Below are positions 1,997 through 48,472 of a DNA stretch of 62,080 bases, piece by piece. The notes beneath the pieces are model-generated. The model was not told where the DNA came from. It did no database searches and saw nothing but the letters and a program-made list of their open reading frames with translations. The translations under genes and the position numbers were made by a program. How positions within the stretch are numbered: the stretch's first letter is position 1; the number at the start of each line of letters is the position of its first letter. The DNA is from a virus, in the IMG/VR virus record IMGVR_UViG_3300031963_000147, positions 1-62,080 of that record. One strand, 5' to 3'.

Positions 1997-2008
1997 ATAC
2001 TAAATGAC

Positions 2009-2553: not shown

Positions 2554-2557
2554 TCAG

Positions 2558-3880: not shown

Positions 3881-3884
3881 AACA

Positions 3885-3912: not shown

Positions 3913-3970
3913 AAATTATGCCTAAACCTTTTCATGTGCTTGTCTACCAGTTAACAGACAAACGTGGGTG

Positions 3971-7947: not shown

Positions 7948-8462
7948 ATCTGTGCGAGCTGGAAGTGCATTGGATCGAGCCTTGAACGGAAATGTCCACC
8001 CCAGTCAAAGCCGGCGTCGGTGAAACATTTGACAAATTCAGGGCTGAACTTTCCTTTTGTTCCAAGCTGATTTTCAAAAGCATTGAAGTCTACTGCTATG
8101 GCCCACGCGTGCAGGGAAAGGAATTTCACCGCCTCTTCTAAATCCCCTCTGGTCACAGCGCTGTTGTATTCATCTTCATACCCGCGAATAGGACGAACGT
8201 TGAAGCATCCGTCGAAAGTGCACACCTCGGTAATGCAGTTGGTCTGAATCAAGTTTTCAAATGCGGCCCCAAGCGGAGCCACCAAGTCTTTGTTGCAGAA
8301 AATCTTTGCTGGAATCTGATTGATTTCATACTTGGAAGGAACATCCCACATAATCATGTGGCCTTTTACCTTTCCTGGGAAACCATATTTTTCAAAACAT
8401 TGCTGAGAATTAACCATAAATACCGGATTTTTATATATTTGTGCCCGTTCTGCTGCTGTCAT
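7944..8462 (-). CDS. Endolysin, peptidase M15 (VanY/L-Ala-D-Glu peptidase-like)
   Basis: The C-terminal half shows the M15 zinc peptidase signature: LSLHAWAIAVDFN with H118 and D125, and RLDPMHFQ with D163 and H166. Zinc would be held by H118, D125 and H166. The 172-residue length matches single-domain phage endolysins of this family (for example the T5 type), which cut peptide cross-links of peptidoglycan. No signal peptide is visible, so a holin would be needed; a holin-like gene lies two genes upstream. The gene is separated from the cupin gene by a terminator. Confidence 0.88.
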   Translation of the reverse strand: MTAAERAQIYKNPVFMVNSQQCFEKYGFPGKVKGHMIMWDVPSKYEINQIPAKIFCNKDLVAPLGAAFENLIQTNCITEVCTFDGCFNVRPIRGYEDEYNSAVTRGDLEEAVKFLSLHAWAIAVDFNAFENQLGTKGKFSPEFVKCFTDAGFDWGGHFRSRLDPMHFQLAQI

Positions 8463-9365: not shown

Positions 9366-9373
9366 CAAATTTA
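9366..9373 (-). promoter_or_regulatory. Bacteroidota-type -7 box TAAATTTG
   Basis: It matches TAnnTTTG exactly on the minus strand, 19 bases before the ATG of the holin-like gene. Its TAA is the stop codon of the giant polyvalent gene, so promoter and coding end overlap. A lysis-gene promoter is inferred. Confidence 0.45.
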
Positions 9374-12300
9374 TTGTGCTCGGCGTCTTCTCTCTCCATC
9401 CCTCATTTTCTTTTTCACAATGATTTCAGCTTTCTTTTGAAGCATGTTTTTTACTCCTTCGGGCACTTCTTCCCCTCCGTTTTCGTAGAGGTATTTGCCT
9501 TCCAGCTTCAATGTTTCCTTCTTCAACATGTCTGTGTATCCGCCATAAGTGTTGGTAGACACGCCGACAGAACCGATCAAAGTGAATACAGAAGCCAGTT
9601 CGGTAGACTGCTCTTGATAGTTTTCGACTACCGAGGCAATGTACATTGGAACAAACAGTTCGGTAAGCTGATCTTTGAGCAAGACAGGGTTGCCATATTC
9701 GTCGATCATCTGCCCATACTTGTTCTTTTCTGCCATTCCTTTTTCAAGTATGGCCGCTGCTGTTGGATGAAGTTTTCCCTGAAACAGTTTGTATGTAAGC
9801 CTCAGCCAATTAGTGTTTGCCCTTCCGGTCTCTTCGTTGTACTCTCCCATTTCAACAGTTTCGCCATACTGGTTCACAATTTCTTGGGTGTACATTCTGG
9901 CTTGGAAGGTGAGCATCTGTGATCTACCTCCCCATGGGTCAACCCTTGTGTCTCCAACTTTGATTTTGGCAAAGTCTGAAGATCGAGGATCCAGACTTAC
10001 CGAAACTCCGTCTTTATCATCGTCGTCATCCCCGCCAAACAGTGATCGGAACAAAAGCACGAAAGCCGCCGACGTTCCGTATGTAGCCAGCCAGTTTTCA
10101 AGCGCTACCCTTTGGGCAACACTTAATTTAGGACGGCCACTCTCCATGTCAGTTTTCTGCAGGAAGTAAATAAATCCGATCGGCGTAGTCTGCTTAATCA
10201 CCGAAGACCAGTTCTTTGCCGAGAACAAAAGGTATGACAACCCTTTTGTGAGGGCCGCTTTATACTTTGGGCTTCCTGGCACGGCTCCGCGTCCGGTGTA
10301 GGTGTTAATCACCTTGGCAAGATTCTCAAATTCGCGCTTGTTGTTCTGAATCGTGTATCCACGCGCCAACAGCATTTTACGTCCGCGCTCGTACTCCCGA
10401 ATCCGCAGGTAGTTCAGATATGCGGAAGCCCCGCGTTCCGTCACCTTCATCGGGTTCAATTCTTTGACGCGCTCCCCGACGCGCTCCCCGAATATCGCCT
10501 TTGCTGCTCCGCCAACAGGAACGTCATAAATTTTGTGACCAAGAGCACCAAAGACAAAGCCTTCCTCTGCCTTGCTGATGTCACCTCCGAATTCGGACAA
10601 TTCCAAACCAGCGACCATGGCTTCTGTGTACCACGGCAAGTCCTTCACCATGTTCTGAATCCGCTTGATCGTAGATTCATTAGCTGCAGCTATTCCAAGT
10701 TGCTTGATCGCCTGAAGAAGCTCTCCCTGCTGAGTAAGGGCGTATTTCATCGTAAGCGGTCCGCCTTGAATCAATATTGGCGAAAATTCCAGCGAAGCAC
10801 GAACTGTTTTTGGCAAATTCCACGCTTCATTGAACGCATTCCATCTAGCTTCTGAATTTTTGAAGTTTCTCAGTGAAGCATCCAAGATGTCCTGATCTAC
10901 CTTGTCTTTCAATTCCCGGAGACGGGCCCGTTTTCTAGCAAGTTCTGTATCTTCGACCAGCGGCGTTCTTTTCTTCGGAGCATAGTCCTTCTCTCGCAAT
11001 CTTCTCTCGTACTCCTGAATCAGCTTTTCGGTGTTCTTCTTCGCATTGGCTAGCCTTTGCGCCTCAATCACGCCAGCTTCCTTTCTTGCTTCCTTCAACC
11101 GTGCCTGAAGCGCTTTCAAAACTTCCCTTTTTGCCTCAATCTCCGGTGTGCTTACCTTTTCCTTTGACTTGAATTTAAGGTCGTTGCTGTCCAGCGCCTT
11201 TTGTGTGCTTTCAATAGCGTAGTCCAAAAGACGGATGGCAGCATTAATCCTGCGTGACTGGCTCATTTCTTCGCCAAACAGCGCATCGCGTTCCTTCCTT
11301 AATTCAGCAAGCCTTTCCTTCAGGTCTTTTACGGTCTGATCGTAGGCAACTCCACGCTTGGATTTTTCAATCCTCATACCGGTCTCGATCTCGCGCTCTA
11401 TGTCTTGAATCGCGTTTGTCAACCTGGTCTTGATAGCATCCAGCGCAGTTTTAAGCTGGCGTTCACTTGCTTCCTGATCTACCGGAAGATCCTTCATGGC
11501 CTCCCGAAGCTCCTTCATCTTCAATCGGATGTCCGGATCGGTAGGTTCCCTTTGAAGTCCTGAGCGCAGTGGTGAAAGTCCTGTTTGAACGTCTTCAAGG
11601 CCGGAAATGATACGACCAATATTCTTGGCTTTACGAAGTGCTTTCGAAATATCATCCGAAGCCATTTCGATAGTCCTTCCGTAACCAGTGATCGCATCGC
11701 GCACCTCCCGTTCACTGAATTTGTAGTCTGGGAACGCTTCGTCTACTACCAACCGAACCTGCTCGGTGATGTCTTCAATCGTTTCGTATCCTTCAGCAAC
11801 CAGTGAACGCAGGAATGAATTAGGAATGACCAGATTCCCTTCATCCGTCATGTACGGCTCCGGAACGCCTTCTTCTTGGTAATAGTCTGCAAACTTCTGT
11901 ATTGCCTCAGTCTTCTTTTCTGGATTAAGAGACTTGTACCACTCTGTGTTTTGCAGGTAATCAATCCCCTTTTTGACGGCCTGAGCAAGAGACTGTGTTG
12001 TATCAAATGTTGTGGCAACTATTTCAACTGCCGTATCCCATGCGATAACAGCCGGTGAAGCGGAATTGAAAACGTCTGGCCTGGCAAGTTTCGCCTTGCG
12101 GATACGGTCCGAGATTTTCTCTCTTTCCTTCTGAGGAAGTTTCCTGCCGGAAGTTTCCCTGGCAATGTTTTCCTTAATGATGGAAATTGCTACTTCTGCG
12201 TCCAGCCTTTCCTTGTCGGCGGCAAGCTGCTTGATCTCCTCCCGAAGTGAATTCATTTCCTCCTCGTACTCTCTCCACTTCTTCTCTACCAGTTCAGGAA

Positions 12301-15300
12301 TATTGCTGTCACCGGATGCCGTTCTGTATTCGCTGAATTTCTTCTCGATGTCAAAGCCGATGTCGTAATTTTCGTAGATGTACTTGTAGATGTTCACCCC
12401 ACGACCGGCATTGGTTCCTCTTTCAGAAAGGATCCGCAACAAATCAGGAACAGCCTTTGTGTCTCCAAGCATATCCGGATTCATCATGGCCTTGGCAATT
12501 ACGATCGCTCCGATGTCGTCAGGAACCAGACGGCTTACAACAGCTTCTTTGAATGCTGTTGCCATACCAACTGAATCAATAAAGTCTTGCGCGATAATAT
12601 CTGCCTCGTATGCTGTGCGCACATGGTATTGGTCAAAGCCCATTTTCTCAATGGACTGCTTCAGCGCATCCTCGGCCATTCCGCGCATAGCTCTTCCGGC
12701 AACGGAAGCCTCTCTTACGTCTCCGCTTCCGCTGATATTGAAGTCATAGTCAACTGACCCAGAAACCGGTTGTTCTTTGGTTGATTCAACAGGATCTGGA
12801 CCAACGGTGAGCGCGGCATCTATAAAGTCCTGAATCGTGCCTTGTGATTCAATTACCTGTTTTACCGTAGGTTCCTCATTAATCAGGCGGATAATATCTT
12901 CCCGTGAATAACCGGTATTGTACGCTCCGACAACTGCAGCACGAACCTTGTCCATCATTTGTTCTTCCGGTGAAAGCTGGTATTCAGCTCCTCCGCGAAC
13001 TACCTTTTGGTATGAATTTGCCACCGGTGTACCCGTGCGTACCGCTTCAGCAAACTTTCCGGCGAAGGTTTTCAGTTCGGATACGTTATCCAGGTTGATT
13101 TCAAAAGTGTCCTTTCCGGTAAAGAACTTGATTAATGAATTGAAGAAAGCCTTGATCTTATCCCAAAGAGGTGTGTTTTTGTACCCGTCCAGTTTACCGG
13201 CAGCTACTGCAGCAAGGAATTCAATCACCGCTTCTTTTTTCTGCTGGTTAGGGTCTGCATAACGACTACCGAAAGCAACAAACTTTGACAGCGTCGGGTC
13301 TGATTCAATTTGAGAATACAGTCCGTCGAGCAATTCTGGATTCATCTCAATCATTATCGCCATGATCGGGTGTGCCGCTTCATGGAACAATGTGGTGTCT
13401 CCAATTTTATTTACGTTCAAATGAATTTCACCACTGATCGGGTCGTATGCGGCAGAAGTATCTGCATTTGCAGGATCTTCTCCCATTGCTTCCAGTGCGC
13501 TTGCATAGCTTTCCGCATCATTATGAATTACTACACGCGCTCCAGGATCAACATTTTTCAATGCTGATACTACCTTGTCAATCTGTGCACGCAGCTTTTC
13601 ATCCGTGATCGTAGCAACGTCTCCGGTGGCCTTTTGGTATTCCGCAGCGGCGTCGTCAAGGTCTTCCTCTGGGTTAGCGTTTTGCCCTTGATTTCTCTCC
13701 CTTTCTTCGCGTGCCTTTTCTTCTTCTTCAAGTTCTTTCAGGATGGCGTCTCTCTTTTCTTTTGCCTGCTTTAATCCCTCGATGTCTTTTGGGTCCGCAA
13801 CTAAATCTGGTTGCGCTTCATATTCAGCGATATTTTTTTCAATGCCAGACTTTACGCGCTCGTAGTAATTTATGTCTTCCAAAACATTTTCACGAAGCGA
13901 TGATATAGCCCGCAATATCGTCCACCATTCAAACTCTCTTCCTGACCTAACAATGGTCTTTATTGTCTTTCCTTTATATTCAAGATACAGGCTTCGGTAA
14001 CCTTTGTCGTTACTAGGGGCGCTTGTAACAATCTCAATTCCTCCTATTTCACCAATCTTTACAACTTCGATTGAACCCCTATCAAGAAGGCTTTTTATTC
14101 TATTAGCAATTTCCTTGTAAAACTCTTTGCTCTGTTCCGTGGATTTTGTGTCAAACTGCTTTCCGGAAACGGTTGCCGTAAACACGGGGAAGTTAGGAAC
14201 TGTTATTTCTTTTTGCTTTTCTTTACCGTTTTCATCAACAGTAATTTCTATAATTTTTCTGTCACCTTCATTGTTTATTGTGGATTTGGCAATTTCAGCA
14301 ACCTCTTTGCTTATATCAATCCACCGATTATATGAATTAAGGCTTGACTTTTCGTTTTTAATCCTTTCGTCTCTCAGCGCATTCGCTCTCTTGGCAGATT
14401 CAATCCTGTTCTCAAACTTCCGTATCTGGCCGCCGAGCTTTTCAATATCCAACAGCCTTGTGTCTCCACTTATCGCCGCTGCAATTTCGCTGAGCGTCAT
14501 GCTTTCACCATCTTCAAAGTCCATTTCACGCACACCTCTACCTCCGGCGCGGAACGAATCTATCCCCGCTTGCTTTTTAGCAAGAAGCCCAAATCTGTAC
14601 GCGTCGATCGTTTCTTCTGTCCCGTAATAGTAGATGGCAACCTCTTCGTTCATATTTCCCTGGCGAATACCCCGTCCATTGCGCTGCTCCATATCTGACG
14701 GCCTCCACTGAGCGTCTAAGTGGTGCATAGCAACTACTCTTCTCTGAACGTTTACTCCGGTTCCCATTTTTTTGGTAGAGCCAATCAACACCCGGACTTC
14801 CCCGTTGTTTACCTTTAAGAAAAGCTCTTCCTTCTTCGCTTTTGTTGGAGCATCGTGAATGAAGGCTATTTCATTTTCAGGTATGCCCATTCGAACCAGC
14901 TTTTTCTTCATTTCGGCATAAACACTAAACGATTCAGTGTCTTCTGCTTGGAAAATAACGCTTTCTGCTTCTGAAGGAGACATTTCAAAAACAGTAACAA
15001 GCGCCTCTTTAATTTGAGCTCTGTCTTTCAGTTTCCAAATGGCGTCAGCTCCAGAATATTCAGCAATGGATTCTTCACCCATTCTTTCTACCATTTCGTC
15101 ATAAACCCTTTTGCCGATAGGAGCCGCTTTATCTTTTGGAACACCCAAGTCAGAAAATATGAGTTGCGTGCCTTTTATGTCTTGTGAATCAATATAATGC
15201 TGGTACACCTTGTCGGCAGCTACCTGTATTTTACCTCCGTCTTCCGGCATTTTTGGAAATACCATTCGAGGATCAATACTTGCCTTTGACCCAAGCGTAG

Positions 15301-18300
15301 TAAGATTAATGCCTAATGATTTTTCCCATGAATCAGGAACATCTATTCCCACCGCCAAAAGCGGCCCCACACTTCCTGTTCTTGACGCCTCATAAATCGC
15401 GTCGGTAATTGCTCTTTGGCTTTCTGATTGCTTGATAAGTACAACTTCTGGTTTGCCTCCCTTGATTTTTGGTCGTGGCAACTGAAGATTATGAACGGCC
15501 CTGATGTCTGATACTTCAGTGTACATCGTGGCAAGTTCAGTGACGTTGACGAACTTATTTAGCCTTGTTTTACTCTTAATAACTCCGGCAACGTTCTTTT
15601 CCATTGTAGCACTTACAATTCCAAACGTATTTATGAACTGGTCGATGCTATTCATGCCTAGTTTCTTCAGCAAGGACGGGCGAATAAACTGAAATATGTT
15701 GTAAAGCTCGGTAAGCGAGTTTGATATTGGTGTTCCAGAAGCAAAACATACTCCTTTATCGCCACTATGAATATACTGCAGGTAACGGCAGATCATTTTC
15801 AGGTTTGCTGCCTTATTTGATCCCGCAGGATTTCCTAATCCTGAAACATTTCTCATGCCTGTGTGAAAGGCAAGGTTTTTAAACTCTTGGCTCTCATCAA
15901 TAAAGAGCATATCAAGCCCCATATCACCCATGTTGATCTTGGTGGCATACTCTCCTTTGTCTTGCAGTTTGTTGAGCTTAGTGGTCATGTTTTCAATCTT
16001 TTCTTGCAGTGCTTTAAGCTGTTTCTTTGAAAACATGTCTCTTTCCCCACTAGAATTTCCTTTGATTTCAGCAATAGCATCCATGAGTTCTTCAATCTCA
16101 TTCTGAATGTACTTTTCTTCGAAATCAGGAGGCAGAGTGAGTGTGCCCAAATTCTCATGAGAAATAATCACAAGGTCCCAGTCATTGTTTGCTACCTGAG
16201 AAAAGAATCGCTGTCTGTTTGCTGCTGAAAAATCAGTTTCTTTTGGAGCAAGAATTTTCAATCCAGGATATGCTTGCGTAAGCTCTTTGTACATACCTGG
16301 GATTACAGATTTCATAGTACAGATAACAGGCTTATTTACAAGCCCCATCTGCTTCATCTTGATCGCCGCCGATCCAAGAACCAGTGTTTTTCCGGCCCCA
16401 ACAATATGATCGACCATTCCGCCCATCTTCTGAACCAACAGCATCACCGCGTCTTTTTGGTGAGGGCGAAGTTCTATCCCTTGAAGCCCAGGGAACGTCA
16501 GTGTGCTTCCACTGTATTCCTTGATTACGGTCCCGTTAAATACCCTGTTGTAAATCTCGGCAAGCTCTTTTTTGAATGTTGGATCGGTAACAACAAGCTG
16601 TGAAAACGCATCTTGAAGTTTTTCTACCTTATCTCTTACTGATTGCTCCAAAACAGGCAGCGGAGTTTTTGAGTCGTCTCTGCTATTTGTCATGAAGTAA
16701 GGCCCAATTTTTTTAGTGAATGCTGCCTCAATTACGTCGCCCACCTGCTTTTTTGTTCCGTGTTCTCCAAGCGCCTCATATTCTCCGCCGACCACCGAAG
16801 AAACAATATTGTATTTGTCTGTGGCTTTTGAGTATGTGACTTTTACTTTCCCTGAACCGAAAACAACATCCAGAAAGGACTGATAATAATTTACCGGTAT
16901 CCAACCCGCGCCAAGAGTAAATGTGATGTCTTCGGCTGGAATTGGGTCTGGAATAACTTTGGACAGGGCTTCTGCGTTTCGATCATACTTGGAGCTTATC
17001 TTTCTCCATTCATTCGCCTGATCGAGTTTTTCCCGTACGTTTCCAGAAAGGTATTCAGATGCTTCAATTACGCTTCCGTCTGGTGTTTCAAAGACTAAAT
17101 CGCCCATTGCCTTCACTGCTTCTTCATCGCTGGAAAGATCCATGACCTCCCGAACAAATGGAACGTTGACGTGACCAAAGGCATTGATTGAATAAGCAAT
17201 GGCATCCGCAGGATTGTTTGTCCTCTCAAATGCGGGACGATCTGCCCCTGCGGACTTATAGACTACATCAGCAAACTTTCCGTCAGGGCGAATAAGTCCA
17301 AGAACAGCAAACGCGTCTGGGTCTTTCTGAATGATTTGTGAAATAACGGATCTTCCACTAAGTAGTGAAGTGATGTTCTGCACTTTTACCCGCTTCACAA
17401 AGGAATTCAATAAATCAAGTATCTCAACCCTTTGAGCAGAAGCGTCTTCCGACGCCCTGTCCTTTGACAGAATATCAAAATACAGATTTTTCAGATTAAT
17501 GAAATCGTCGAGGGTCTGGCGGTCCTTGTCTGGCGGAAGTCTTGTAATCTCCACAACATTGTGTACGCCCTGCAGTTTGTCGTAATCAATAACCGTAAAA
17601 TACTTGCCACCCTTCTTAATGACACCACCGGAAACCATTCTTCCATCCGGTGTCATCTGCAAAATTTCATCAACCTCTTTTTCCTTGTGCTTATATGGTT
17701 GAATAGGCATTTTAGATGCCAGTTCCTGAAGTTTTGCCGCTACTTGTTCTGGTTCCGGAGCGCCGGTAAGGGTGTATCCCCTGTCCTCGCTGTACAGACC
17801 GCCTGCCAGATACTTTTCTCCAAAAACGTTTTCTTTGTTCTTGGCAAAATATTCGTTGTATTCAATAAATTGTTTTGGTCTGTCCGGCTTGTTATGCGGA
17901 GCAAGTTCTTTTACAATCTTGCTGATTGGATGATCTTCGCCGGATGGCAACCCGATTGGCTCCTGTCTTTTTCTGAGCAGAATAATATCCGTCACAACCT
18001 GTGTGCCGGCATCCGCATTGAAAGCCTGTTCACCAAGCCTAACCGCGCCAACAAATTCGCATGTTTGCAGAATAAGGTCTCTGGTTGACTGGTTTTCTCT
18101 TGTGTCAAGAGTATTTGCTGTTGTGAGGATAGCAATATATCCTCCGGGGCGAACTACATCAATGGCTTTTGCGAAGAAGTATGTATGCAGTTTTTTCTGC
18201 GATGCCTTCCAAAGCCCTCCTTTCTTATCCAAAACTGGATCGTAAATGTCCTGCTTTCCAAAAGGAATGTTCGAAATAAACAGGTCAAACGAATTTGAAG

Positions 18301-21300
18301 GCAATGAAGCGCGTTCAATCGGACTGTTTTTAATCAGAGAATTCGGATATAGATACTTGGACACAAGTGCGCTGACTACATCCATGTCAACCCCAGTAAT
18401 ACGGCTGTTGCTCATGGTTGTTTTAGGCATTCCGCCAATAAAGCGACCACTTCCAACAGAGCCCTCCAATATCCGTCCTCCGGTGAATCCAGCAGCGGTC
18501 ACTCCCTCCCACATTGCCCGGATAATCGGCAAAGAGGTGTAGTACGCACTTCGGGTAGAGGACTTGGCTGTTGCCAGTGGGTTTGTCTTGGTCTTTTTGC
18601 CGATTGAATCCAGAAGCGATATGATCCTGCGGGATTCATCATAAAACTGAAGACTTGATTTATTCCACCTTTCACGATCATCATCCAGAAGTATTTCCGA
18701 AAGCGGACCTAATCCATTGTACTTGGAAAGTGCCTCCTTTTGTTCGTCTGTGGCAAACTGATCTGGATTGTCTAGCAGTGAATCAATTATTTCCAATGCA
18801 GCAATATTGTCTTCATACGCCTGCTTTTTGGAGAACGTTTTGTTCGCTGTCCTTTCCCAGTTTTCCGGATAGACAAAGTTCTGCTGAATGTCGGGGTCTA
18901 GTCTGTCAGGCTGAACAAGCTCTGTATTGCCTGTGCCTGCGCCTCCTGTTCCTGCATTGTCGGCAGGTACATCTCCAGGTATTGTTGATAGAGATCCACC
19001 ATTATTTTCATTCGCTTTTCCGCCTCCTGTGGTGCTACCTCGTTCACCTCCTTGCGTTCCTGCTCCGGCATTGATTCCAGTATCAGAGCCACCGGCCCCT
19101 CTACCGTCTTGATTAATTGTTTCTCCAGACTGGTCATTTTGTTCGGCATTAAATTCATATTCATCCACGACGGATTCTGAATCCATCTGTTTTTTCTGCT
19201 CTGGTGTTGCCCCCGTCATTTTGAATGACATATAGGCCGCTTTCATTGCGGGAATAATAGCTTCTCCCATCCTGGCAACAGCGTCTTCAGCTACCTCTGC
19301 AAATGTCAGTATTCCAAGTTCTGCGTATTTGGCAATGATTCTTACGGCTATTTCAAGCTGCTTGGGATTCAGACCTGCGTTGAGGTTGCCCATTTCATTT
19401 CCGAGCTCTCCCCATAAATCATCAAGGTCTTTGTTCTTGATCTTGCTGATTCGCTCTTGGCGCTTGGTTGGTTTCTCCGCCGGTTTTTCTTGTGGTTTTG
19501 GCATTTTGCCAATAACGACGTTTGGCGCGGGTATCCCTGATTGTTCAACGATGTCCTTAATCACTTCCTGCGGTGTCTTTTCGCCAGAAAGAAGATCCTG
19601 AACGTCTTTTACCTCTTGTGAAGGTGAATTTTTATTTATGTAGTCAACAACATACGGGATGGCCTCTTTAGCAAAAATGGTAGCAAGCTCTTTGGATGTT
19701 GGAGCAGGTGATTTTGGAGCTCCCCATCCATACGGCGCCCCCGTTCCTGATATGTTTATTCTCTGGTTCGGACCTACATACTGATCCCGACCCTTTTTTG
19801 TCCTGTCTTCTACTCGGTAGAAAATCTCACTGAGCGTGTAGTTGTCGTATGACCGGTTGTATTCTGGTTCATACTTAAATGCCGCATACAGGGTAAGAGG
19901 TGTGCCTGGAATAGAAAGTTCAACATACACATCACCACCTGCGGGAGCAATGTTTGCTCGAACTCCATTTTTACCAATTTCCCATCCGGTCATTTGGGCA
20001 ATATCCTTCATAAATGAAGTTATTTCCCGCTTGGCCTTTTTGCCAATTTCGTAGCTGGGTATCTCGTGGTCAATGTCGTCTGTTGTATAAACCTCGGTCA
20101 GCTTTTTGATCTTTTTGCCTACCGCGTTTATCTGCGCCTCTATTTTTTCGAGGGCTTCCCGAACTGTTTCTGGCGTTCTAGCAGCTCCTGCCTCTTTGAT
20201 TGCAGATTCTGCATCACTTTCGACAGTCTCGATAGATCGTTCGTCGATTGCTTCTGATTGTTCTTCATTGTCTTGGGTTTCTTGGGTTTCTTCCTCCCTG
20301 ATCGCTGATTTTACCCGACCATAGGTTTCATTGATAAGGTCTACTGCCTCGTCTCCGATAATCTTGCGGACACCTTTTTCGTTGTCGGCAATTTGTTCCT
20401 GAATTTCCTTTATCGCTGCGTCTGGATTCTCTTTGATTCCTTCTTTCCATGCAGTAGCCTGGATTGACTTCGATGGTGAATCAAGTACGAGCTGCGTGAT
20501 CTTGTCTTTGGGAGAAGCGTTTTTGGATTCTTTGCCGGCATTTAGCGCATTCTGAATATTTGCATTTAATTCATCCAAATGATCGGCAAGCGGAGCAAGT
20601 GCCTTTGGTGATTGGCTTTGTGGGGCCGTAGTCAGTGCTTCTGGCGCATACTTTTTAACGTATTCAGTATATACGCCTTCTACAATACGAGCGATTTTTT
20701 GAGCATCGCTTTTTGATGCATTCGCAGGCAGTATGATTCCAACACCAGCGGCAGTAGTTCTGCCTGCTGTTTTGCCCATGATACCAACATGAATTTCCTT
20801 TCTTCCGTCTGCGTACTGATGAATTCGTTCTTTCACAAACACTCCTGCAGTACCGATTTTGTCCCTTTCTCCACCGCGAGCGTCTACTTCAAGCCCAACG
20901 TCGTTGAAATGCAGTTTAGAATCGTTTACATACGGAACAATTTTAACGTCCTTCGTGTTTATGGGCGCTGGATTTTTATTGCCGCTTTCAATCTGTGCTG
21001 CAGGAACCTCTTCTGCCTGTGCTTCTTCTCCTTGGAATTCTTTTTCACCGGCGTTTGCTACGTCAGAAGTAAGAGCGTCACCAATGGCTCCTTCAAGCCT
21101 GGAAGCAAGGTCAATGAATTGCTGAACAAGCGGATTAATGTTGTCCGGAATGTCTTCTTTGTCAACGATGTTTCCTTTTGAATCAACCAAGTTGAATTCT
21201 TCTCCACTCATATCAACTTCGAACTTGTATCCCAGATTGGAAAGTTCATTGTTGATCTCTGCAAGTCTTCTGCCTATTGGCGATGCAGTTCGGAGAATGT

Positions 21301-24300
21301 CTTCGTTGGTGATCTCGTTGGTAGCAGGCGTAGACTTACCTTCTAAAGCAGCAAGCTCCGCGTCGTATTCGGCGTCGGTTGGTAAAACAACTTCAACATC
21401 AGATGTAAATATTTGCGGAAGCGCAGCATTAACATTGTATTCTCCGTTGGCTCTTTTTTCTGTTATTGCTATGCCTGACGTGTTTTCTTCCCATACGTCG
21501 TTTTCATTTAAAAACAACGGTATCAACTGGTAAGATTCTGTTCCCCTTTTCGTCGTTTTTTTTCTGACTATTAAGGCATCTCCATCCTCGTTTTTAAATA
21601 TTGTTCCTTCTGGTATGCTTTCTAAAAATTCAAATTTTTCTTGCGGCGTTGATTTTCTACTAATTATGTCTTTTCTTCTGCTTTCTATATCCGCCTTTTT
21701 ATCTGCCGTGTCGATTGAATCAACATTACCGGCAGACGTGTCGATTTTTTCGCCTGTTTTCGACGTGTCGGGTGTTTTATTCCCTTCAATCTCCCGTGCA
21801 ACAGCAGAAAACGGATTGAACACCGGCTGCGCGATCATAGAAGGTCCCTGCGGATTCACCGGAGCTTTCCCCTCTTCTACTTCTTCGATCTCGGGAATAT
21901 ATCCTTCCTGAACTTGCTGAATGATCTTTGCCTTTTCTTCGTCGCTTTCTACGCTCTCTACCGGGGTATTCATCAATGCTTCTACATCCGGCTTCTCTTC
22001 CGTATTCTCTGAATCAGTTGCCTGCGGCTTAACCGCCGCTTTTGCAGCCTTTCTCTTCTCGAAAAAGCCCTTGATTCCTTCATTCAGATGATTCAGCATA
22101 GTAGCCGCACCCTTGCCAAATGCGGCAATACGAACCCTTTTTGTAGCTACCTGAGCAACTAAATCAGGATTGGTAAATACTTGCTCAGCATCCGCCGTTG
22201 AAAACAGATACTCGCTTCCGTCCGCATACTTGATTGAGAAGAATTCAGGATCCTTTCCATTAATGAAGTCTGCCGCCTGCTGCTGGTAGTCTTTTGCTTG
22301 TTCTTCGAAGACTTTTGCCAATACCGGATCGTCCGCGTACTGCGCTGCCTTAGCAAGTGCTTCATCTGCCCTGGATGAAATCCATGAATAAATCGAAGCA
22401 TCATTCGGGCTCAACTTCAGAGCTTTTGCCTTTTCCTGATATTTCTCAGCCTGAAGTACGTCGGCAATCATGCCGTCACGCTGCGCCTTGTCGATCTGTC
22501 CAGAAGTAAAAAGGTTGTCAATGGCGGCCTTTGTGAATTTAGACCCCTTATTGAATACTGTGTTGTAGACAAACTGGGTAGATTGGCCCTCAATCACATT
22601 GGAAAGAACGTCTTTGGATGCCTGTGCAGTAATGGCGTTTACCATTTCCTGCTTGTTACCGGTAGAATTTACCTGACCGGCCATCCCAAGAATAGCCACC
22701 GGAGCGATCGGCACAAACGTGTCCTGTGCCTGCTTGATAAAGTCACCGAAATTCATAGGACGCGTCCCAACCTTTCCGTCAGTCATGTCCACCATTTCCC
22801 ATGCGTTTCTGCCTTCGGAAATATTCTTCTCTGCGATGTTCTGCAGGGTTTCCTGAATCAATTCAGTTGAAAGTTCGATACCTCCGCCGACAAGCATACG
22901 TCCGCCAACGGTAGGAACCATTGAAAGACCTTTTGAAATAAACGGAAGACCCTCGAAGGCATACGCCCACATAATATCAAGCTGTGAATCAAAGCTCTTC
23001 TGCGCTGCTTCCTTGGCCTTGGCTACATTTCCGCCGGAGCGTTCAAATGCGTCGTTGTATGCGCGGCCAGCAATATCGGCGGATTCAGCAGTGAATCCAG
23101 CAACCGAAGCGGCAAGCATTTGAACCGAAGCGCCCATTCCAAGTCCGCCGGTTGTCATCGCTGCCGTTGTGCTTGCCAAAATGCTTGGCGTCATTCCTCC
23201 TCCAAGCTGTCCGGTCAGCGTCATCAGGTTTTTCAGATCAAAAAGGTCTGAAACTTTGTCGCTCTTCGGCGTGGCAACCATGTTCTTTTGAGCAAGGTAG
23301 TCACCGTACATTTCCAGTTCAGGAATATCCATGGAAGTAGCAAGTGCCTTCAGGCTTCCTCCAAATCCATTCATAAATGACCTTCCAAGCTGCGCGAATG
23401 GAGCCGTGAGAAGACCGGCTTCAAATGCCTGTCTTTCGGTGGCGTCCATAGATGCCATTCTCTCTTCCGCCGCCTGCTTGTAAGCATCCGAATACTTCTG
23501 TGAAAATTCAGCAGCCTTCTCTGGAGACACTTGGTATTCGGCAAGAAACTTCTCCTCGGCCTGCTTAATGCGTGCATCAGCCTGTTTTTTCAGGGCTTCT
23601 GCCGCTTGCTTGTATTGGTTCTGATACCGGGAATTGATCTCGTTCAGCTTTGTTGTGGCCTGATCGTATAGTGTCGAACTCGCTTTCTGAATTTCCGCGA
23701 TCTTGGCGTCACCTTCATTTTTGATCTGGTCAAATGTCGTTTTGTACTGATCCAACGGAATAGCACCGGCCTGAAATTGCTTGTTCAGCTCTTCCAGTCT
23801 GGCATTGTACTCCGCGTTCAGCGCATTTGCCTGTTGCTGCAGTTGCTCCTTTGCCTTTTTCTGTTGCTCAAATACTGGCAGTGCTTCTGATTCAGCCTGC
23901 TTCTGTATTTGATTAAAAAGAGCGCCGGTGGCGGCATCATATTTCAGCCTCTCCGCTTCGTCGGTAGTGAATTTCGCATCCATGTCGGCATTCACTTCTT
24001 TTTTGAACGCCTTTTCATACGGACTGAAAATTTCTTTTGCCCTCGGCTCGATCATCTTCATGTCTACCGTGGCGATCATGGTGTTGTAAAGCAACTTCTT
24101 GAAGCTGCTGTTTTCACCAAGCCCATACATGGCTGCCTGTCTGGTGGCGTATTCGTCCACAACCTCTGGATTCACAACGACGTGCCCGCTTTTGGACTTC
24201 ATGGTGAATTTGCCGACGTCGTTTCCGATCATGCTCTCAGCAAGTTCGTTGACAATAGGGCCCATCTTCTTTGTGTTGGATTCAGCCCATGTCTTTGCCG

Positions 24301-24907
24301 GCGTAACCAAACGATCAATCTCCTCGTTGGCCTTGCGGATCTGTTCTCTCTGCTCGTTTACGGTAGGCGCCCATGCTCCGGGAACACCGGCATAGGAAAT
24401 AAACCTTTCCACTTCCTTCTGGCCTTTTGCCTCGAAGTTTGTCTTCAGGCTCATAGCGTTACTAGCGCCTATCTGAGCATTTTCGTACTGGTTGGCAAGC
24501 GCCTTAATTTCAGCCTGCTTCTGCTGGTATTGCTGTTCGCTGAATTTCCCCAGTTCATTCCTTCCCTCGGCTTTGTTTCGCGCAACAATCTTGTCCGCAT
24601 GACTAGCAATTTCTTCTCCACTCGGAATAGAAGGCTTTTGCGGCGCGTTTGAACCTTGACCAGACCCCGCCGCGCTGCCTGGTTCCGCCCCCTTTAGCTT
24701 TTCGACAAATGATTCGGGGGTGTGCGTGAATTTGTCCCCGTAGGCGTCTTTCATTACGCCGTATATCTTCTTTTGATATTCCGGATCATTGCTGATCTTT
24801 TCATCAAATGATTCAGGTGTATGGGTGAATTTGTCTCCATACGCTTCTTTCATAATACCATAAAGTTTTTGGCTGTATGGCTGTCCGGTTTCTACCTTTT
24901 TTCCCAT
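9371..24907 (-). CDS. Giant polyvalent protein: adenine methylase, SNF2 helicase and zincin (5,178 aa)
   Basis: One uninterrupted ORF of 5,178 codons, a quarter of the window. Order of parts: two N-terminal repeats (about 12-38 and 45-71, each with AYGDKFTHTPESF); coiled coils; hydrophobic stretches near 490-600 and 728-743, possibly for membrane passage; a long linker; an N6-adenine methylase (GRILEGSVGSGRF, catalytic NIPF at 2213-2216); an SNF2-type helicase (GAGKT with K2840, DESQ box, SGTPISNS, MEQRNGRGIRQGN); an HEAAH zinc peptidase site (H3842-H3846); coiled coils; and a C-terminal domain of the large polyvalent-associated type (DPRSSDFAKIKVGDTRVDPW). DarB-like and other polyvalent proteins are packaged and injected to protect DNA from restriction. 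Two internal-virion-like genes precede it. Anti-restriction is inferred. Confidence 0.9.
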   Translation of the reverse strand: MGKKVETGQPYSQKLYGIMKEAYGDKFTHTPESFDEKISNDPEYQKKIYGVMKDAYGDKFTHTPESFVEKLKGAEPGSAAGSGQGSNAPQKPSIPSGEEIASHADKIVARNKAEGRNELGKFSEQQYQQKQAEIKALANQYENAQIGASNAMSLKTNFEAKGQKEVERFISYAGVPGAWAPTVNEQREQIRKANEEIDRLVTPAKTWAESNTKKMGPIVNELAESMIGNDVGKFTMKSKSGHVVVNPEVVDEYATRQAAMYGLGENSSFKKLLYNTMIATVDMKMIEPRAKEIFSPYEKAFKKEVNADMDAKFTTDEAERLKYDAATGALFNQIQKQAESEALPVFEQQKKAKEQLQQQANALNAEYNARLEELNKQFQAGAIPLDQYKTTFDQIKNEGDAKIAEIQKASSTLYDQATTKLNEINSRYQNQYKQAAEALKKQADARIKQAEEKFLAEYQVSPEKAAEFSQKYSDAYKQAAEERMASMDATERQAFEAGLLTAPFAQLGRSFMNGFGGSLKALATSMDIPELEMYGDYLAQKNMVATPKSDKVSDLFDLKNLMTLTGQLGGGMTPSILASTTAAMTTGGLGMGASVQMLAASVAGFTAESADIAGRAYNDAFERSGGNVAKAKEAAQKSFDSQLDIMWAYAFEGLPFISKGLSMVPTVGGRMLVGGGIELSTELIQETLQNIAEKNISEGRNAWEMVDMTDGKVGTRPMNFGDFIKQAQDTFVPIAPVAILGMAGQVNSTGNKQEMVNAITAQASKDVLSNVIEGQSTQFVYNTVFNKGSKFTKAAIDNLFTSGQIDKAQRDGMIADVLQAEKYQEKAKALKLSPNDASIYSWISSRADEALAKAAQYADDPVLAKVFEEQAKDYQQQAADFINGKDPEFFSIKYADGSEYLFSTADAEQVFTNPDLVAQVATKRVRIAAFGKGAATMLNHLNEGIKGFFEKRKAAKAAVKPQATDSENTEEKPDVEALMNTPVESVESDEEKAKIIQQVQEGYIPEIEEVEEGKAPVNPQGPSMIAQPVFNPFSAVAREIEGNKTPDTSKTGEKIDTSAGNVDSIDTADKKADIESRRKDIISRKSTPQEKFEFLESIPEGTIFKNEDGDALIVRKKTTKRGTESYQLIPLFLNENDVWEENTSGIAITEKRANGEYNVNAALPQIFTSDVEVVLPTDAEYDAELAALEGKSTPATNEITNEDILRTASPIGRRLAEINNELSNLGYKFEVDMSGEEFNLVDSKGNIVDKEDIPDNINPLVQQFIDLASRLEGAIGDALTSDVANAGEKEFQGEEAQAEEVPAAQIESGNKNPAPINTKDVKIVPYVNDSKLHFNDVGLEVDARGGERDKIGTAGVFVKERIHQYADGRKEIHVGIMGKTAGRTTAAGVGIILPANASKSDAQKIARIVEGVYTEYVKKYAPEALTTAPQSQSPKALAPLADHLDELNANIQNALNAGKESKNASPKDKITQLVLDSPSKSIQATAWKEGIKENPDAAIKEIQEQIADNEKGVRKIIGDEAVDLINETYGRVKSAIREEETQETQDNEEQSEAIDERSIETVESDAESAIKEAGAARTPETVREALEKIEAQINAVGKKIKKLTEVYTTDDIDHEIPSYEIGKKAKREITSFMKDIAQMTGWEIGKNGVRANIAPAGGDVYVELSIPGTPLTLYAAFKYEPEYNRSYDNYTLSEIFYRVEDRTKKGRDQYVGPNQRINISGTGAPYGWGAPKSPAPTSKELATIFAKEAIPYVVDYINKNSPSQEVKDVQDLLSGEKTPQEVIKDIVEQSGIPAPNVVIGKMPKPQEKPAEKPTKRQERISKIKNKDLDDLWGELGNEMGNLNAGLNPKQLEIAVRIIAKYAELGILTFAEVAEDAVARMGEAIIPAMKAAYMSFKMTGATPEQKKQMDSESVVDEYEFNAEQNDQSGETINQDGRGAGGSDTGINAGAGTQGGERGSTTGGGKANENNGGSLSTIPGDVPADNAGTGGAGTGNTELVQPDRLDPDIQQNFVYPENWERTANKTFSKKQAYEDNIAALEIIDSLLDNPDQFATDEQKEALSKYNGLGPLSEILLDDDRERWNKSSLQFYDESRRIISLLDSIGKKTKTNPLATAKSSTRSAYYTSLPIIRAMWEGVTAAGFTGGRILEGSVGSGRFIGGMPKTTMSNSRITGVDMDVVSALVSKYLYPNSLIKNSPIERASLPSNSFDLFISNIPFGKQDIYDPVLDKKGGLWKASQKKLHTYFFAKAIDVVRPGGYIAILTTANTLDTRENQSTRDLILQTCEFVGAVRLGEQAFNADAGTQVVTDIILLRKRQEPIGLPSGEDHPISKIVKELAPHNKPDRPKQFIEYNEYFAKNKENVFGEKYLAGGLYSEDRGYTLTGAPEPEQVAAKLQELASKMPIQPYKHKEKEVDEILQMTPDGRMVSGGVIKKGGKYFTVIDYDKLQGVHNVVEITRLPPDKDRQTLDDFINLKNLYFDILSKDRASEDASAQRVEILDLLNSFVKRVKVQNITSLLSGRSVISQIIQKDPDAFAVLGLIRPDGKFADVVYKSAGADRPAFERTNNPADAIAYSINAFGHVNVPFVREVMDLSSDEEAVKAMGDLVFETPDGSVIEASEYLSGNVREKLDQANEWRKISSKYDRNAEALSKVIPDPIPAEDITFTLGAGWIPVNYYQSFLDVVFGSGKVKVTYSKATDKYNIVSSVVGGEYEALGEHGTKKQVGDVIEAAFTKKIGPYFMTNSRDDSKTPLPVLEQSVRDKVEKLQDAFSQLVVTDPTFKKELAEIYNRVFNGTVIKEYSGSTLTFPGLQGIELRPHQKDAVMLLVQKMGGMVDHIVGAGKTLVLGSAAIKMKQMGLVNKPVICTMKSVIPGMYKELTQAYPGLKILAPKETDFSAANRQRFFSQVANNDWDLVIISHENLGTLTLPPDFEEKYIQNEIEELMDAIAEIKGNSSGERDMFSKKQLKALQEKIENMTTKLNKLQDKGEYATKINMGDMGLDMLFIDESQEFKNLAFHTGMRNVSGLGNPAGSNKAANLKMICRYLQYIHSGDKGVCFASGTPISNSLTELYNIFQFIRPSLLKKLGMNSIDQFINTFGIVSATMEKNVAGVIKSKTRLNKFVNVTELATMYTEVSDIRAVHNLQLPRPKIKGGKPEVVLIKQSESQRAITDAIYEASRTGSVGPLLAVGIDVPDSWEKSLGINLTTLGSKASIDPRMVFPKMPEDGGKIQVAADKVYQHYIDSQDIKGTQLIFSDLGVPKDKAAPIGKRVYDEMVERMGEESIAEYSGADAIWKLKDRAQIKEALVTVFEMSPSEAESVIFQAEDTESFSVYAEMKKKLVRMGIPENEIAFIHDAPTKAKKEELFLKVNNGEVRVLIGSTKKMGTGVNVQRRVVAMHHLDAQWRPSDMEQRNGRGIRQGNMNEEVAIYYYGTEETIDAYRFGLLAKKQAGIDSFRAGGRGVREMDFEDGESMTLSEIAAAISGDTRLLDIEKLGGQIRKFENRIESAKRANALRDERIKNEKSSLNSYNRWIDISKEVAEIAKSTINNEGDRKIIEITVDENGKEKQKEITVPNFPVFTATVSGKQFDTKSTEQSKEFYKEIANRIKSLLDRGSIEVVKIGEIGGIEIVTSAPSNDKGYRSLYLEYKGKTIKTIVRSGREFEWWTILRAISSLRENVLEDINYYERVKSGIEKNIAEYEAQPDLVADPKDIEGLKQAKEKRDAILKELEEEEKAREERERNQGQNANPEEDLDDAAAEYQKATGDVATITDEKLRAQIDKVVSALKNVDPGARVVIHNDAESYASALEAMGEDPANADTSAAYDPISGEIHLNVNKIGDTTLFHEAAHPIMAIMIEMNPELLDGLYSQIESDPTLSKFVAFGSRYADPNQQKKEAVIEFLAAVAAGKLDGYKNTPLWDKIKAFFNSLIKFFTGKDTFEINLDNVSELKTFAGKFAEAVRTGTPVANSYQKVVRGGAEYQLSPEEQMMDKVRAAVVGAYNTGYSREDIIRLINEEPTVKQVIESQGTIQDFIDAALTVGPDPVESTKEQPVSGSVDYDFNISGSGDVREASVAGRAMRGMAEDALKQSIEKMGFDQYHVRTAYEADIIAQDFIDSVGMATAFKEAVVSRLVPDDIGAIVIAKAMMNPDMLGDTKAVPDLLRILSERGTNAGRGVNIYKYIYENYDIGFDIEKKFSEYRTASGDSNIPELVEKKWREYEEEMNSLREEIKQLAADKERLDAEVAISIIKENIARETSGRKLPQKEREKISDRIRKAKLARPDVFNSASPAVIAWDTAVEIVATTFDTTQSLAQAVKKGIDYLQNTEWYKSLNPEKKTEAIQKFADYYQEEGVPEPYMTDEGNLVIPNSFLRSLVAEGYETIEDITEQVRLVVDEAFPDYKFSEREVRDAITGYGRTIEMASDDISKALRKAKNIGRIISGLEDVQTGLSPLRSGLQREPTDPDIRLKMKELREAMKDLPVDQEASERQLKTALDAIKTRLTNAIQDIEREIETGMRIEKSKRGVAYDQTVKDLKERLAELRKERDALFGEEMSQSRRINAAIRLLDYAIESTQKALDSNDLKFKSKEKVSTPEIEAKREVLKALQARLKEARKEAGVIEAQRLANAKKNTEKLIQEYERRLREKDYAPKKRTPLVEDTELARKRARLRELKDKVDQDILDASLRNFKNSEARWNAFNEAWNLPKTVRASLEFSPILIQGGPLTMKYALTQQGELLQAIKQLGIAAANESTIKRIQNMVKDLPWYTEAMVAGLELSEFGGDISKAEEGFVFGALGHKIYDVPVGGAAKAIFGERVGERVKELNPMKVTERGASAYLNYLRIREYERGRKMLLARGYTIQNNKREFENLAKVINTYTGRGAVPGSPKYKAALTKGLSYLLFSAKNWSSVIKQTTPIGFIYFLQKTDMESGRPKLSVAQRVALENWLATYGTSAAFVLLFRSLFGGDDDDDKDGVSVSLDPRSSDFAKIKVGDTRVDPWGGRSQMLTFQARMYTQEIVNQYGETVEMGEYNEETGRANTNWLRLTYKLFQGKLHPTAAAILEKGMAEKNKYGQMIDEYGNPVLLKDQLTELFVPMYIASVVENYQEQSTELASVFTLIGSVGVSTNTYGGYTDMLKKETLKLEGKYLYENGGEEVPEGVKNMLQKKAEIIVKKKMRDGERRRRAQ

Positions 24908-24910
24908 GCT

Positions 24911-26449
24911 TTAGTTCGGGTCTATTTCGGGGTTAAAGTTTCCTTTTTCTTGTGACGACGCTCCTTTCTTCTTCAGGTCTGCGATCACCTCTTCTACTCT
25001 CTTAATCGCTTTCGCAACACTTTTGCTTTCATTGTCGTCCATGATCGACGCTTTCGGGTCGAGCTTTTTCAGGCTGGAAAGATATGCTTCATTTGTAGCA
25101 AGCGCCTCTGCCATTTTTGATTTTTGCTCCCCAGAATATGCTGATGCCTTTTGCTTGTTTGCCGAAAGGTCGGTCTGCGCTTCCCAGTTTTTTACCCCGC
25201 CATAAAAGTCCGCATTTCCGGATGCCGCCTTGAATGACGCCTCGTTGCGATCAAGATCAACTACTTGCATTGTTCCTGAGCCATACGCGGTCAAAACACC
25301 TTTATCGGCGATCACTTTGTCTTCTGATACGCCGTATTTGGCCGCCATCTCTGCCTTCTGTTGATATAAATCAACTCCCTCTCTTATGGGTGATTGACCG
25401 ACAACCTTCATGGATTCACCTTGAAGATGCCACTTGCCATCATTTCCGACAAATGCGTTTACCTGTCCTCCTAGTATCAGGTTTCCTCCATCTGGCGTCT
25501 CGTATCGCTGCGGTGTAAGACCTTCAAATGCCACGTAGTCTGCCCGTCCTTCACTTGTTGGATACTTGGACTGAGGAACCATGGTGAATTTCTTTGAACC
25601 ACCGGCACCGAAGTTTCTTGCGGCCAGTTTTGCTTCTTTGGCTGCTTCACTGTTGTTCGTTTTTCCGGGCTTGTAGTTCCTGTAAAACTCGTCCTCGTTT
25701 GATTTATAGATGTATTCTGCCGCGTCCTGAACGGTTTCGTGTGGCATACCCGCGTCCTTGGCCTGTTTCAGTGCTGAATCAAGTTCTGCTTTGTTTCTGG
25801 ATAATTTCATCACTGCCGGTCCCATAAAATCTTCCTTGGAAACTTCGGTATATGCTCCGTTGGTTTCTGGTTTCGGGATCAATTCAGCGGCCCATTCTAC
25901 CGGGTCAAACTTGGGTGTGAAAAATTCAGCAAATGCGCCCTGAAGGTATTCTTTCTTTTTAGACGGATCTGGAATAGCCACCGCGTTCTGCAGGATGCTT
26001 GTGTAATCATTGTAGTTGAACTGGTCTGGATTCTCTTCCACGATCTTACCGGCGGCCTCTGTCATGTCCTGAATTTCCTTTCCGGCGGATTGAAGCCCCA
26101 AAATCCTTGCGCGGGTATTGGCAAACTCCTTTTCAAATTCCGGATTCTGATAAAGGTCTATTCCGGAAGATTCCAGTTCAGCCTTTCTTTTGGCTAAATC
26201 GTCGATTTCTTTTACAACTTGGTCGCGTGTCGGCGCATACAGTTCCTTTGGATAAAGTTTGTCCAGGCTGTAATTTTCCCGGAAGGCTTTTCGGTTTGCT
26301 GCCTGCTGGTTAGCCTGCTGCACCATCATGTTCATTTTTCGCGTGTTGTACGCGCTCCAAAACTGGTCAATATTAAATGACCCGCCAAGCATCGGACTTG
26401 GAACCGGAGATTTTATCCCGCGATATGGTGAATTAGGTTCTAGTGCCAT
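24911..26449 (-). CDS. Internal-virion-like protein (512 aa)
   Basis: The 512-residue product is mainly helical and charged, with a Gln/Asn-rich helix near residues 40-55 (MVQQANQQAANRK) and a Lys/Glu-rich C-terminal coiled coil. It has no enzymatic motif that I recognise. It lies 3 bases before the giant polyvalent gene and 2 bases after another internal-virion-like gene. In podoviruses this slot, after the tail tube/ring genes, encodes ejected core proteins. Packaging and ejection are inferred from that order. Confidence 0.6.
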   Translation of the reverse strand: MALEPNSPYRGIKSPVPSPMLGGSFNIDQFWSAYNTRKMNMMVQQANQQAANRKAFRENYSLDKLYPKELYAPTRDQVVKEIDDLAKRKAELESSGIDLYQNPEFEKEFANTRARILGLQSAGKEIQDMTEAAGKIVEENPDQFNYNDYTSILQNAVAIPDPSKKKEYLQGAFAEFFTPKFDPVEWAAELIPKPETNGAYTEVSKEDFMGPAVMKLSRNKAELDSALKQAKDAGMPHETVQDAAEYIYKSNEDEFYRNYKPGKTNNSEAAKEAKLAARNFGAGGSKKFTMVPQSKYPTSEGRADYVAFEGLTPQRYETPDGGNLILGGQVNAFVGNDGKWHLQGESMKVVGQSPIREGVDLYQQKAEMAAKYGVSEDKVIADKGVLTAYGSGTMQVVDLDRNEASFKAASGNADFYGGVKNWEAQTDLSANKQKASAYSGEQKSKMAEALATNEAYLSSLKKLDPKASIMDDNESKSVAKAIKRVEEVIADLKKKGASSQEKGNFNPEIDPN

Positions 26450-27196: not shown

Positions 27197-27204
27197 CAAA
27201 TTTA
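27197..27204 (-). promoter_or_regulatory. TAnnTTTG box before internal virion genes
   Basis: TAAATTTG on the minus strand, 4 bases before the ATG at 27192. The TAA is at the same time the stop codon of the upstream muzzle-like gene. It matches the Bacteroidota -7 element. Transcripts would be nearly leaderless. Confidence 0.45.
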
Positions 27205-31038: not shown

Positions 31039-31039
31039 A

Positions 31040-44384: not shown

Positions 44385-44390
44385 CAATCA

Positions 44391-48469: not shown

Positions 48470-48472
48470 AAT

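What the first reader, a model, noticed from the sequence alone, without database searches (positions are those of the whole stretch)
9371..24907. 5,178-residue polyvalent protein with methylase, helicase and peptidase in one chain
The ORF is uninterrupted for 15.5 kb and carries an NIPF adenine methylase, a complete SNF2-type helicase, an HEAAH zincin, hydrophobic segments and a large-polyvalent-type C-terminal domain, directly after ejection-protein genes. The size and the combination suggest an injected multi-enzyme that modifies and scans incoming DNA. The zincin may process it or attack a host protein. Roughly 2,000 N-terminal residues have no clear family and may hide new domains.
Basis: partly seen in the sequence, partly recalled or inferred. 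Interest (0 to 1): 0.7.

Follow-up and report, generated by a model that had tools for sequence, protein, structure and literature searches.

The report
Giant DarB-like phage virion multi-enzyme
One very large phage gene encodes a DNA-methylating, DNA-tracking enzyme that is probably injected with the phage's DNA to shield it from the host's defences; it is a new, divergent member of an already described family rather than a new kind of system.

Summary
The ORF is real: 5,178 codons without a stop, but on the minus strand (9371-24907, ATG). The central ~1,700 residues are a DarB-like LPD36-methylase-SNF2 core (PHROG 'DarB-like antirestriction', E=0). The combination and its injection were predicted by Iyer et al. 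2017; a 4,515-aa homologue was found by mass spectrometry in JC1 virions. Size is not exceptional: eight relatives fetched here are longer (5,553 to at least 6,802 aa). NIPF is ordinary for this branch (NVPF in 14 of 15 genome-derived loci). TM-grade hydrophobic segments and an LPD38 C-terminus were not confirmed. The zincin is likely but unproven. New details: an unnamed domain at aa ~1525-1728 (NIAPAGGD motif), found in nine other loci, in exchanged order with a second small module (~1829-1930); a core that forms a deep lineage with one IMG/VR relative whose ends are unrelated, so core and ends are swapped; and a gene order (246-512-giant) matching a block annotated by MS/MS as virion-borne in Cellulophaga phage phi18:3, without sequence homology. 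Verdict: new member of a known kind; modest interest.

The parts
9371..24907 (-). the 5,178-aa DarB-like polyvalent protein gene
   Evidence: phrog_10089 'DarB-like antirestriction' E=0, 1106 bits
24689..24907 (-). aa 1-73: two copies of a 33-aa unit (21 of 28 residues identical); resembles, but is not shown to be homologous to, the N-terminal tag of other Bacteroidota phage giants
   Evidence: repeat; leave-one-out HMM does not find it
22598..23230 (-). aa 560-770: Gly-rich, mildly hydrophobic stretch after an Ala/Gln-rich, coiled-coil-like region
   Evidence: maximum KD 1.29 at aa 589
19724..20335 (-). aa ~1525-1728: unnamed domain with motif NIAPAGGD; predicted helix + four strands in its second half
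   Evidence: phmmer from G alone E 1.5e-8 to 0.011 in six loci (L026 0.051); alignment A5; AF2 pLDDT 65-89 in that part
19118..19423 (-). aa ~1829-1930: short module in front of the methylase, shared with giants of Bacteroidota and Pseudomonadota phages
18578..18880 (-). aa ~2010-2110: LPD36-like segment, GLGP in place of GXG(G/A/S)
   Evidence: position and invariant G-x-G in A1; definition from Iyer section 14
17948..18550 (-). aa ~2120-2320: gamma-class N6-adenine methylase, motif IV NIPF
14408..16510 (-). aa ~2800-3500: SNF2-type helicase/translocase
13013..13630 (-). aa ~3760-3965: probable zincin, HEAAH at 3842-3846, candidate third ligand E3896
   Evidence: BLAST to elemo structural protein E 4e-12; hhalign to Lessievirus-type domains 92%, E 7.5e-7, to HExxxH domains 72%, E 3e-5
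9542..10444 (-). aa ~4822-5122: C-terminal domain shared with an unnamed 1,582-aa protein of phage ctf1B273, downstream of its capsid genes
   Evidence: BLAST E 7e-16; not LPD38 by profile
24911..26449 (-). 512-aa protein just upstream; position of phi18:3 gp121 (499 aa, annotated from MS/MS)
   Evidence: order and size only; no homology
26452..27192 (-). 246-aa protein; position of phi18:3 gp120 (227 aa, annotated from MS/MS)
   Evidence: order and size only
27202..31053 (-). virion structural protein
   Evidence: phrog_14478 'virion structural protein' E 2.6e-22
41904..44387 (-). terminase large subunit
   Evidence: phrog_6681 E 1.5e-49; nearest phages infect Flavobacterium and Cellulophaga
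7944..8462 (-). M15 endolysin
   Evidence: PF13539 E 1.8e-12

Best explanation
It is a DarB-like polyvalent protein of a tailed phage of Bacteroidota. Steps supported by homology: the late-gene cluster makes one chain with an LPD36-like/methylase/SNF2 core, a probable zincin and virion-type flanks. Inferred from relatives: it is packaged in the capsid and ejected with the DNA at the start of infection. Inferred from enzyme families: the SNF2 motor travels along the entering double-stranded DNA and presents adenines to the methylase, or simply occupies the DNA, so that type I-like restriction enzymes cannot act on it. The zincin most likely trims the chain during assembly or after entry. The N- and C-terminal regions most likely dock the cargo in the virion and help it through the envelope.
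For: PHROG DarB-like family E=0 from aa 1922 through the end of the piece at 3500, with a further match to aa 3401-3777. tblastn: 103 phage records match aa 2301-3500, 26 with at least 80% cover. Colinear match to a 2,258-aa frame in P1, the size recalled for DarB. Same core with a HExxH or HExxxH motif after it in LASTA, POI1126, JC1, PEp14, VvAW1 and BKO1, and in 7 of 15 genome-derived loci. JC1 gp69 in CsCl virions, 51 peptides. Late-gene position between virion proteins and endolysin, matching phi18:3 where the 227-aa, 499-aa and 1,935-aa neighbours are annotated from MS/MS.
Against: No virion data for this phage. Motif IV is NIPF, not NPP(Y/F), although a similar substitution is normal in this branch. 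The zincin is not found by Pfam, nor by HMMs built without it, and the fold search is inconclusive. No DarA-type partners were sought. The N-terminal ~1,520 residues have no detectable relatives in the material searched.
Confidence: 0.78

Rival explanations
1. A virion structural or ejection protein first of all: the giant chain forms an ejection conduit or internal core, and the methylase-helicase is passenger cargo that gives a minor or conditional benefit.
For: In related phages the giant next to the same kind of genes lacks the core: phi19:3 gp129 is a 'virion structural protein' family member with no DarB hit, and the elemo giant shares only the zincin region. IMG4 keeps the core but not the flanks.
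Against: The core is the best conserved part (52% to IMG4) and keeps its catalytic motifs, so it is under selection as an enzyme.
Confidence: 0.35
2. The methylase-helicase acts against the host, for example by methylating or remodelling host DNA or displacing nucleoid or defence proteins, rather than protecting the phage in cis.
For: Iyer et al. allow host-directed roles for polyvalent domains; HMM matches to SNF2 helicases of defence systems exist but are weak.
Against: P1 DarB protects phage DNA in cis (Iyer section 14).
Confidence: 0.12
3. The gene is a decayed or chimeric relic, with a long ORF but inactive enzymes.
For: Motif IV and LPD36 motif substitutions (NIPF, GLGP).
Against: Uninterrupted 15.5 kb with coding-phase composition throughout, and the same substitutions in the nearest relative.
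Confidence: 0.04

Closest known systems
Bacteroides phage BKO1-TP3 gp55, annotated DarB-like antirestriction, 5,553 aa
   Same: core in the same order, zincin-type motif (HEAVAH) after the helicase, next to virion genes, Bacteroidota host
   Different: 26% identity in the core; zincin motif of the HExxxH type; true LPD38 at the C-terminus
Lessievirus and relatives: JC1 gp69 (4,515 aa), LASTA, POI1126, PEp14
   Same: core, HExxH downstream, late-gene position; JC1 gp69 found in virions
   Different: 27-32% identity in the core; NPPF; the CSP3 and DC1 products are annotated with a transglycosylase; none was detected here
P1 DarB (2,258-aa frame)
   Same: methylase-SNF2 order, colinear matches
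   Different: less than half the size; the matches are four separate segments at 25-33% identity
IMG/VR contig IMGVR_UViG_3300031962_000002, 3,843-aa protein (L004)
   Same: nearest core, 52% over 1,873 aligned columns
   Different: no HExxH; no BLAST match of the N- and C-termini; followed by the terminase instead of lysis genes
Flavobacterium phage elemo giant 'structural protein', 3,667 aa
   Same: zincin region (E 4e-12); terminase related
   Different: no methylase or helicase match

Membership tests
DarB-like methylase-helicase dyad (Iyer et al. 2017; phrog_10089) | adenine methylase fused N-terminally to LPD36 and C-terminally to an SF2 (SNF2-clade) helicase | tested here: met
DarB-like methylase-helicase dyad (Iyer et al. 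2017; phrog_10089) | motif NPP(Y/F), TP motif and LPD36 GXG(G/A/S) | tested here: inconclusive
   NIPF, YTS and GLGP in their places; Asn, second Pro, Phe and both Gly kept; NVPF in 14 of 15 genome-derived loci, NPPF in 7 of 7 Pseudomonadota phage giants
DarB-like methylase-helicase dyad (Iyer et al. 2017; phrog_10089) | presence in the virion | not testable with these tools
   relative JC1 gp69 found by mass spectrometry
DarB-like methylase-helicase dyad (Iyer et al. 2017; phrog_10089) | cis protection against type I restriction | not testable with these tools
   none here
Polyvalent proteins | several enzymes of unrelated activity in one chain, encoded by an invasive element among late genes | tested here: met
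   methylase and helicase clear, peptidase likely; late-gene context
Zincin-like metallopeptidase of polyvalent proteins | HEXXH on one helix, glutamate on the next, three strands and a helix before | tested here: inconclusive
   HEAAH and E3896 conserved with elemo; predicted order helix, strand, helix, two strands, helices (mean pLDDT 65); hhalign 92% and 72%; HMMs built without G miss it; Foldseek no E below 0.001; VIA-align Z 3-4.4 to zincin-fold entries such as PPEP-2 and selecase, among unrelated rows of equal Z
LPD38 (PF18857) C-terminal domain | match to the Pfam model | tested here: not met
   no hit; hhalign 0.2% against an alignment whose first row hits LPD38
N-terminal tandem tag of Bacteroidota phage giants (phrog_24532) | detectable by a profile built without this protein | tested here: not met
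   not found at E<1 among 3,921 ORFs; 35 of 2,000 shuffles scored at least as high

The most novel reading that the evidence does not exclude
The giant is a modular delivery chassis: phage-group-specific N- and C-terminal docking parts carry an interchangeable anti-restriction core. G and its nearest core relative have unrelated ends, while giants in the same gene position of other flavobacterial phages carry other cargo. The NIAPAGGD domain and the 1829-1930 module, whose order is exchanged between G and gut Bacteroidota giants, would be DNA-handling or coupling parts specific to this cargo.
Probability: 0.35. Interest if true: 0.55.

Novelty: new member of a known kind. Interest (0 to 1): 0.33.

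Why it matters
Giant DarB-like proteins take up about a quarter of their phage genomes (25% here), yet outside P1 their role rests largely on prediction. This member adds a deep lineage with one relative, and a pair of conserved unnamed modules next to the core that make good small targets for structure and DNA-binding tests. It also shows that such proteins are often longer still in Bacteroidota phages and prophages, so length is not a sign of novelty there.

Tried and rejected
Size as a novelty: rejected. BKO1-TP3 gp55 5,553 aa; L015 5,645, L016 6,655, L017 5,786, L020 6,340; incomplete L019 at least 6,802, L022 5,999, L028 6,792 (15 of the 16 loci read, the 3.4-kb L024 dropped). Iyer et al. 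cite a 12,242-aa plasmid protein.

N-terminal tag: at first an HMM that included G appeared to tie its 33-aa repeat to the tag of IMG4, BKO1, gut Bacteroidota giants and Cellulophaga phages. Built without G it misses G. Scores against shuffles were 35 of 2,000 and 121 of 5,000 (full tag; not every shuffle got a score: 1,954 and 4,917 did) and 913 of 5,000 (unit model; 3,802 scored) at least as high. hhalign gave about 1%. I rejected the homology claim. The shuffle numbers printed are stale, because an option clash left an old table in place; one search replaces them.

NIPF as an unusual active site: rejected, see Membership tests. Host-genome distribution of the tag: 1 of 395 and 2 of 295 genomes, the query's own genome G002 included in both; the one further hit is a 208-aa host membrane protein. 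Relatives of the N-terminal 1,100 aa, C-terminal 578 aa and 73-aa start in viral contigs: none. First genome scan with the two-row alignment: none. Solved structures for both ends: none. Foldseek for the NIAPAGGD model: nothing with E below 0.001; some of the better shapes are designed cystatin-like sheets. The VIA-align list for the zincin is too weak to name a family. Searches that did not give the elemo proteomics or a paper on this architecture in Bacteroides phages. Two papers recalled as relevant are not held.
Full report
OBSERVATION. The window is the whole of a virus record of 62,080 bases. ORF 9371-24907 is on the minus strand, starts with ATG and runs 5,178 codons without a stop. Codon-phase GC stays in a coding pattern along its length. 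It begins three bases after the stop codon of a 512-aa gene. Three side claims are weaker: no 19-residue window reaches a hydropathy of 1.3; the C-terminus is not LPD38 by Pfam or by profile comparison; and the upstream 'ejection proteins' have no significant family match.

WHAT IT IS. PHROGs places the central part in 'DarB-like antirestriction' (model length 4,647, E=0) and in a 2,269-position 'DNA methyltransferase' family (E=3e-181). Pfam sees Helicase_C above cut-off and Eco57I, SNF2-rel_dom and ResIII just below theirs. tblastn with aa 2301-3500 matches 103 of 50,697 phage records, 26 with at least 80% cover, all under 60% identity. Against P1 the core gives four colinear segments in one 2,258-aa frame. 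The nearest protein found is in an IMG/VR contig (L004, 'IMG4'): 3,843 aa, 52% identity over G 1911-3759, with no BLAST match elsewhere.

SIZE AND ARCHITECTURE IN CONTEXT. Of 16 loci found in genome contigs (mostly Bacteroidota, but L018 is labelled Clostridia and L024 Lentisphaeria), 15 were read. Four complete ORFs (L015, L016, L017, L020) and three incomplete ones (L019, L022, L028) are longer than G, as is BKO1-TP3 gp55. L017 is nearly identical to BKO1 in core and C-terminus. Motif IV is NVPF in 14 of the 15; the ORF of the fifteenth (L025) starts inside the methylase. A HExxH or HExxxH motif follows the helicase in L015, L017, L018, L019, L020, L022 and L028, 7 of 15; several others are cut by contig ends. 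Among seven Pseudomonadota phage giants, HExxH follows the helicase in five (LASTA, POI1126, JC1, PEp14, VvAW1) and was not found in Atu_ph08 and Y7. BKO1 has HEAVAH. The three-activity chain is therefore common.

PHYLOGENY. A tree of 21 cores puts G and the IMG/VR protein on one long branch apart from both the seven Pseudomonadota phage proteins and the other 12 (BKO1 and 11 genome-derived ones); the forks concerned have support of 98/98 or more, but the program warns that long branches meet. G is thus a deep lineage. Its terminase is nearest to Flavobacterium and Cellulophaga phages (87 records match; about 26% identity in the rows shown).

THE N-TERMINAL HALF. Databases name nothing above threshold in aa 1-1800. 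phmmer with G aa 1480-1760 alone finds L028, L022, L021, L016, L029 and L014 (E 1.5e-8 to 0.011), with L026 at 0.051. The seven-row alignment A5 shares an invariant N-x-APAGG stretch at 28-35% identity; an HMM from A5 also finds L020 and L019, nine other loci in all, L020, L021 and L026 being close to one another. No Pfam model fits the L022 or L028 copies; all E-values are 0.03 or worse. AlphaFold2 gives a helix and four strands for aa ~1618-1720 at pLDDT 65-89; the rest of that model is poor (mean 57.7). A second module, aa ~1829-1930, is found in both Bacteroidota and Pseudomonadota giants. In L014, L016, L022 and L028 it comes before the NIAPAGGD domain; in G it comes after. The first ~1,520 residues remain without relatives. 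The start holds two 33-aa units, 21 of 28 aligned residues identical.

THE TAG THAT FAILED. Other giants (IMG4, BKO1, L015, L017, L020, L026, L034) start with a ~60-aa tandem tag, also found in Cellulophaga phages phi18:3, phi19:3 and phi46:3 just before a giant virion protein. I first took G's repeat for the same thing. A profile built without G does not find it and shuffle tests are not convincing, so I make no such claim. What stands is position: in phi18:3 the 227-aa, 499-aa and 1,935-aa proteins, annotated 'based on experimental MS/MS proteomics analysis', lie in the order that the 246-aa, 512-aa and 5,178-aa proteins have here, without sequence homology of the two smaller ones to their phi19:3 and phi46:3 counterparts.

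ZINCIN. G and the elemo giant share HE-x-x-H, a GEIH strand and a downstream glutamate (BLAST 4e-12). Profile comparison of this pair with the Lessievirus-type domain gives 92% (E 7.5e-7) and with the HExxxH type 72% (E 3.4e-5). HMMs built from those groups do not find G. The predicted element order fits Iyer's description, but Foldseek has no hit with E below 0.001 and VIA-align Z stays under 5. I hold the zincin as likely (about 0.8, a judgement), not proven.

MECHANISM. Shown here: enzyme-family membership, conserved catalytic motifs and late-gene position. Shown elsewhere: P1 DarB is a head component protecting DNA in cis (stated in Iyer section 14), and JC1 gp69 is in purified virions (passages and tables of PMC9144972). 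Inferred: packaging and ejection of G, tracking of the entering DNA by the SNF2 motor, methylation or shielding, and proteolytic trimming.

LITERATURE. Iyer et al. 2017 (PMC5512222; abstract, sections 6, 8, 14, 29, 32 and passages read) describe the methylase-SNF2 dyad, a prophage protein that holds both this dyad and a zincin (Acetonema), and processing or host attack by the peptidase as options. CSP3 (PMC10269572, passages) has a 13,994-bp DarB-like gene with a transglycosylase. No paper on this protein came up; the searches were in one open-licence library, so absence elsewhere is not shown. Passages only of PMC8241571, PMC7077304, PMC8008677 and PMC7886860 were seen and gave nothing on this protein.

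VERDICT. A real, intact and divergent member of a known kind. Interest 0.33: the surprise in size and combination disappears against relatives, while the deep core lineage, the unnamed modules and the module reordering are useful but modest.

Noticed in passing
window 46889-49423, minus strand: A phage GroEL (526 aa, phrog_5725 E 3e-121) next to a 316-aa protein with a GroES/Cpn10 match (PF00166 E 2e-6, two stretches), about three times the usual co-chaperonin length. It may hold more than one Cpn10-like unit; an alignment of three arbitrary parts was not convincing.
   Followed up: partly
L040:8004-8324, L041:8004-8324, L042:3998-4321: In three Cellulophaga phages the tag and the following giant virion protein lie in two frames that meet at a run of nine A. 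The IMG/VR relative L004 has a run of ten A at the same place and is in one frame. This may be programmed slippage making two products, or a homopolymer sequencing error.
   Followed up: partly
L033:1285-1911: A 208-aa bacterial protein with two likely membrane helices (by eye) carries the same tandem tag between them (E 2.8e-12), so the tag is not confined to phages.
   Followed up: no
L025:663-5336: In Dysgonomonas sp. 521 a 1,558-aa frame starts with a sequence that looks like a small internal virion protein (by eye) and continues into the DarB-like core.
   Followed up: no
L004:18349-21612: The terminase of the IMG/VR relative lies directly after the DarB-like gene and contains a long insert that looks like an intein (by eye).
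   Followed up: no
L026:545-12238 and 12115-19611: In Duncaniella muris the giant is split: the core breaks off at 12238 and the zincin lies in the next, overlapping frame, while the near-identical L020 has one 6,340-aa ORF.
   Followed up: no
window 8557-9066, minus strand: A small cupin/AraC-binding-like protein (PF02311 E 5.6e-5) lies between the giant and the endolysin, an odd place for such a protein.
   Followed up: no
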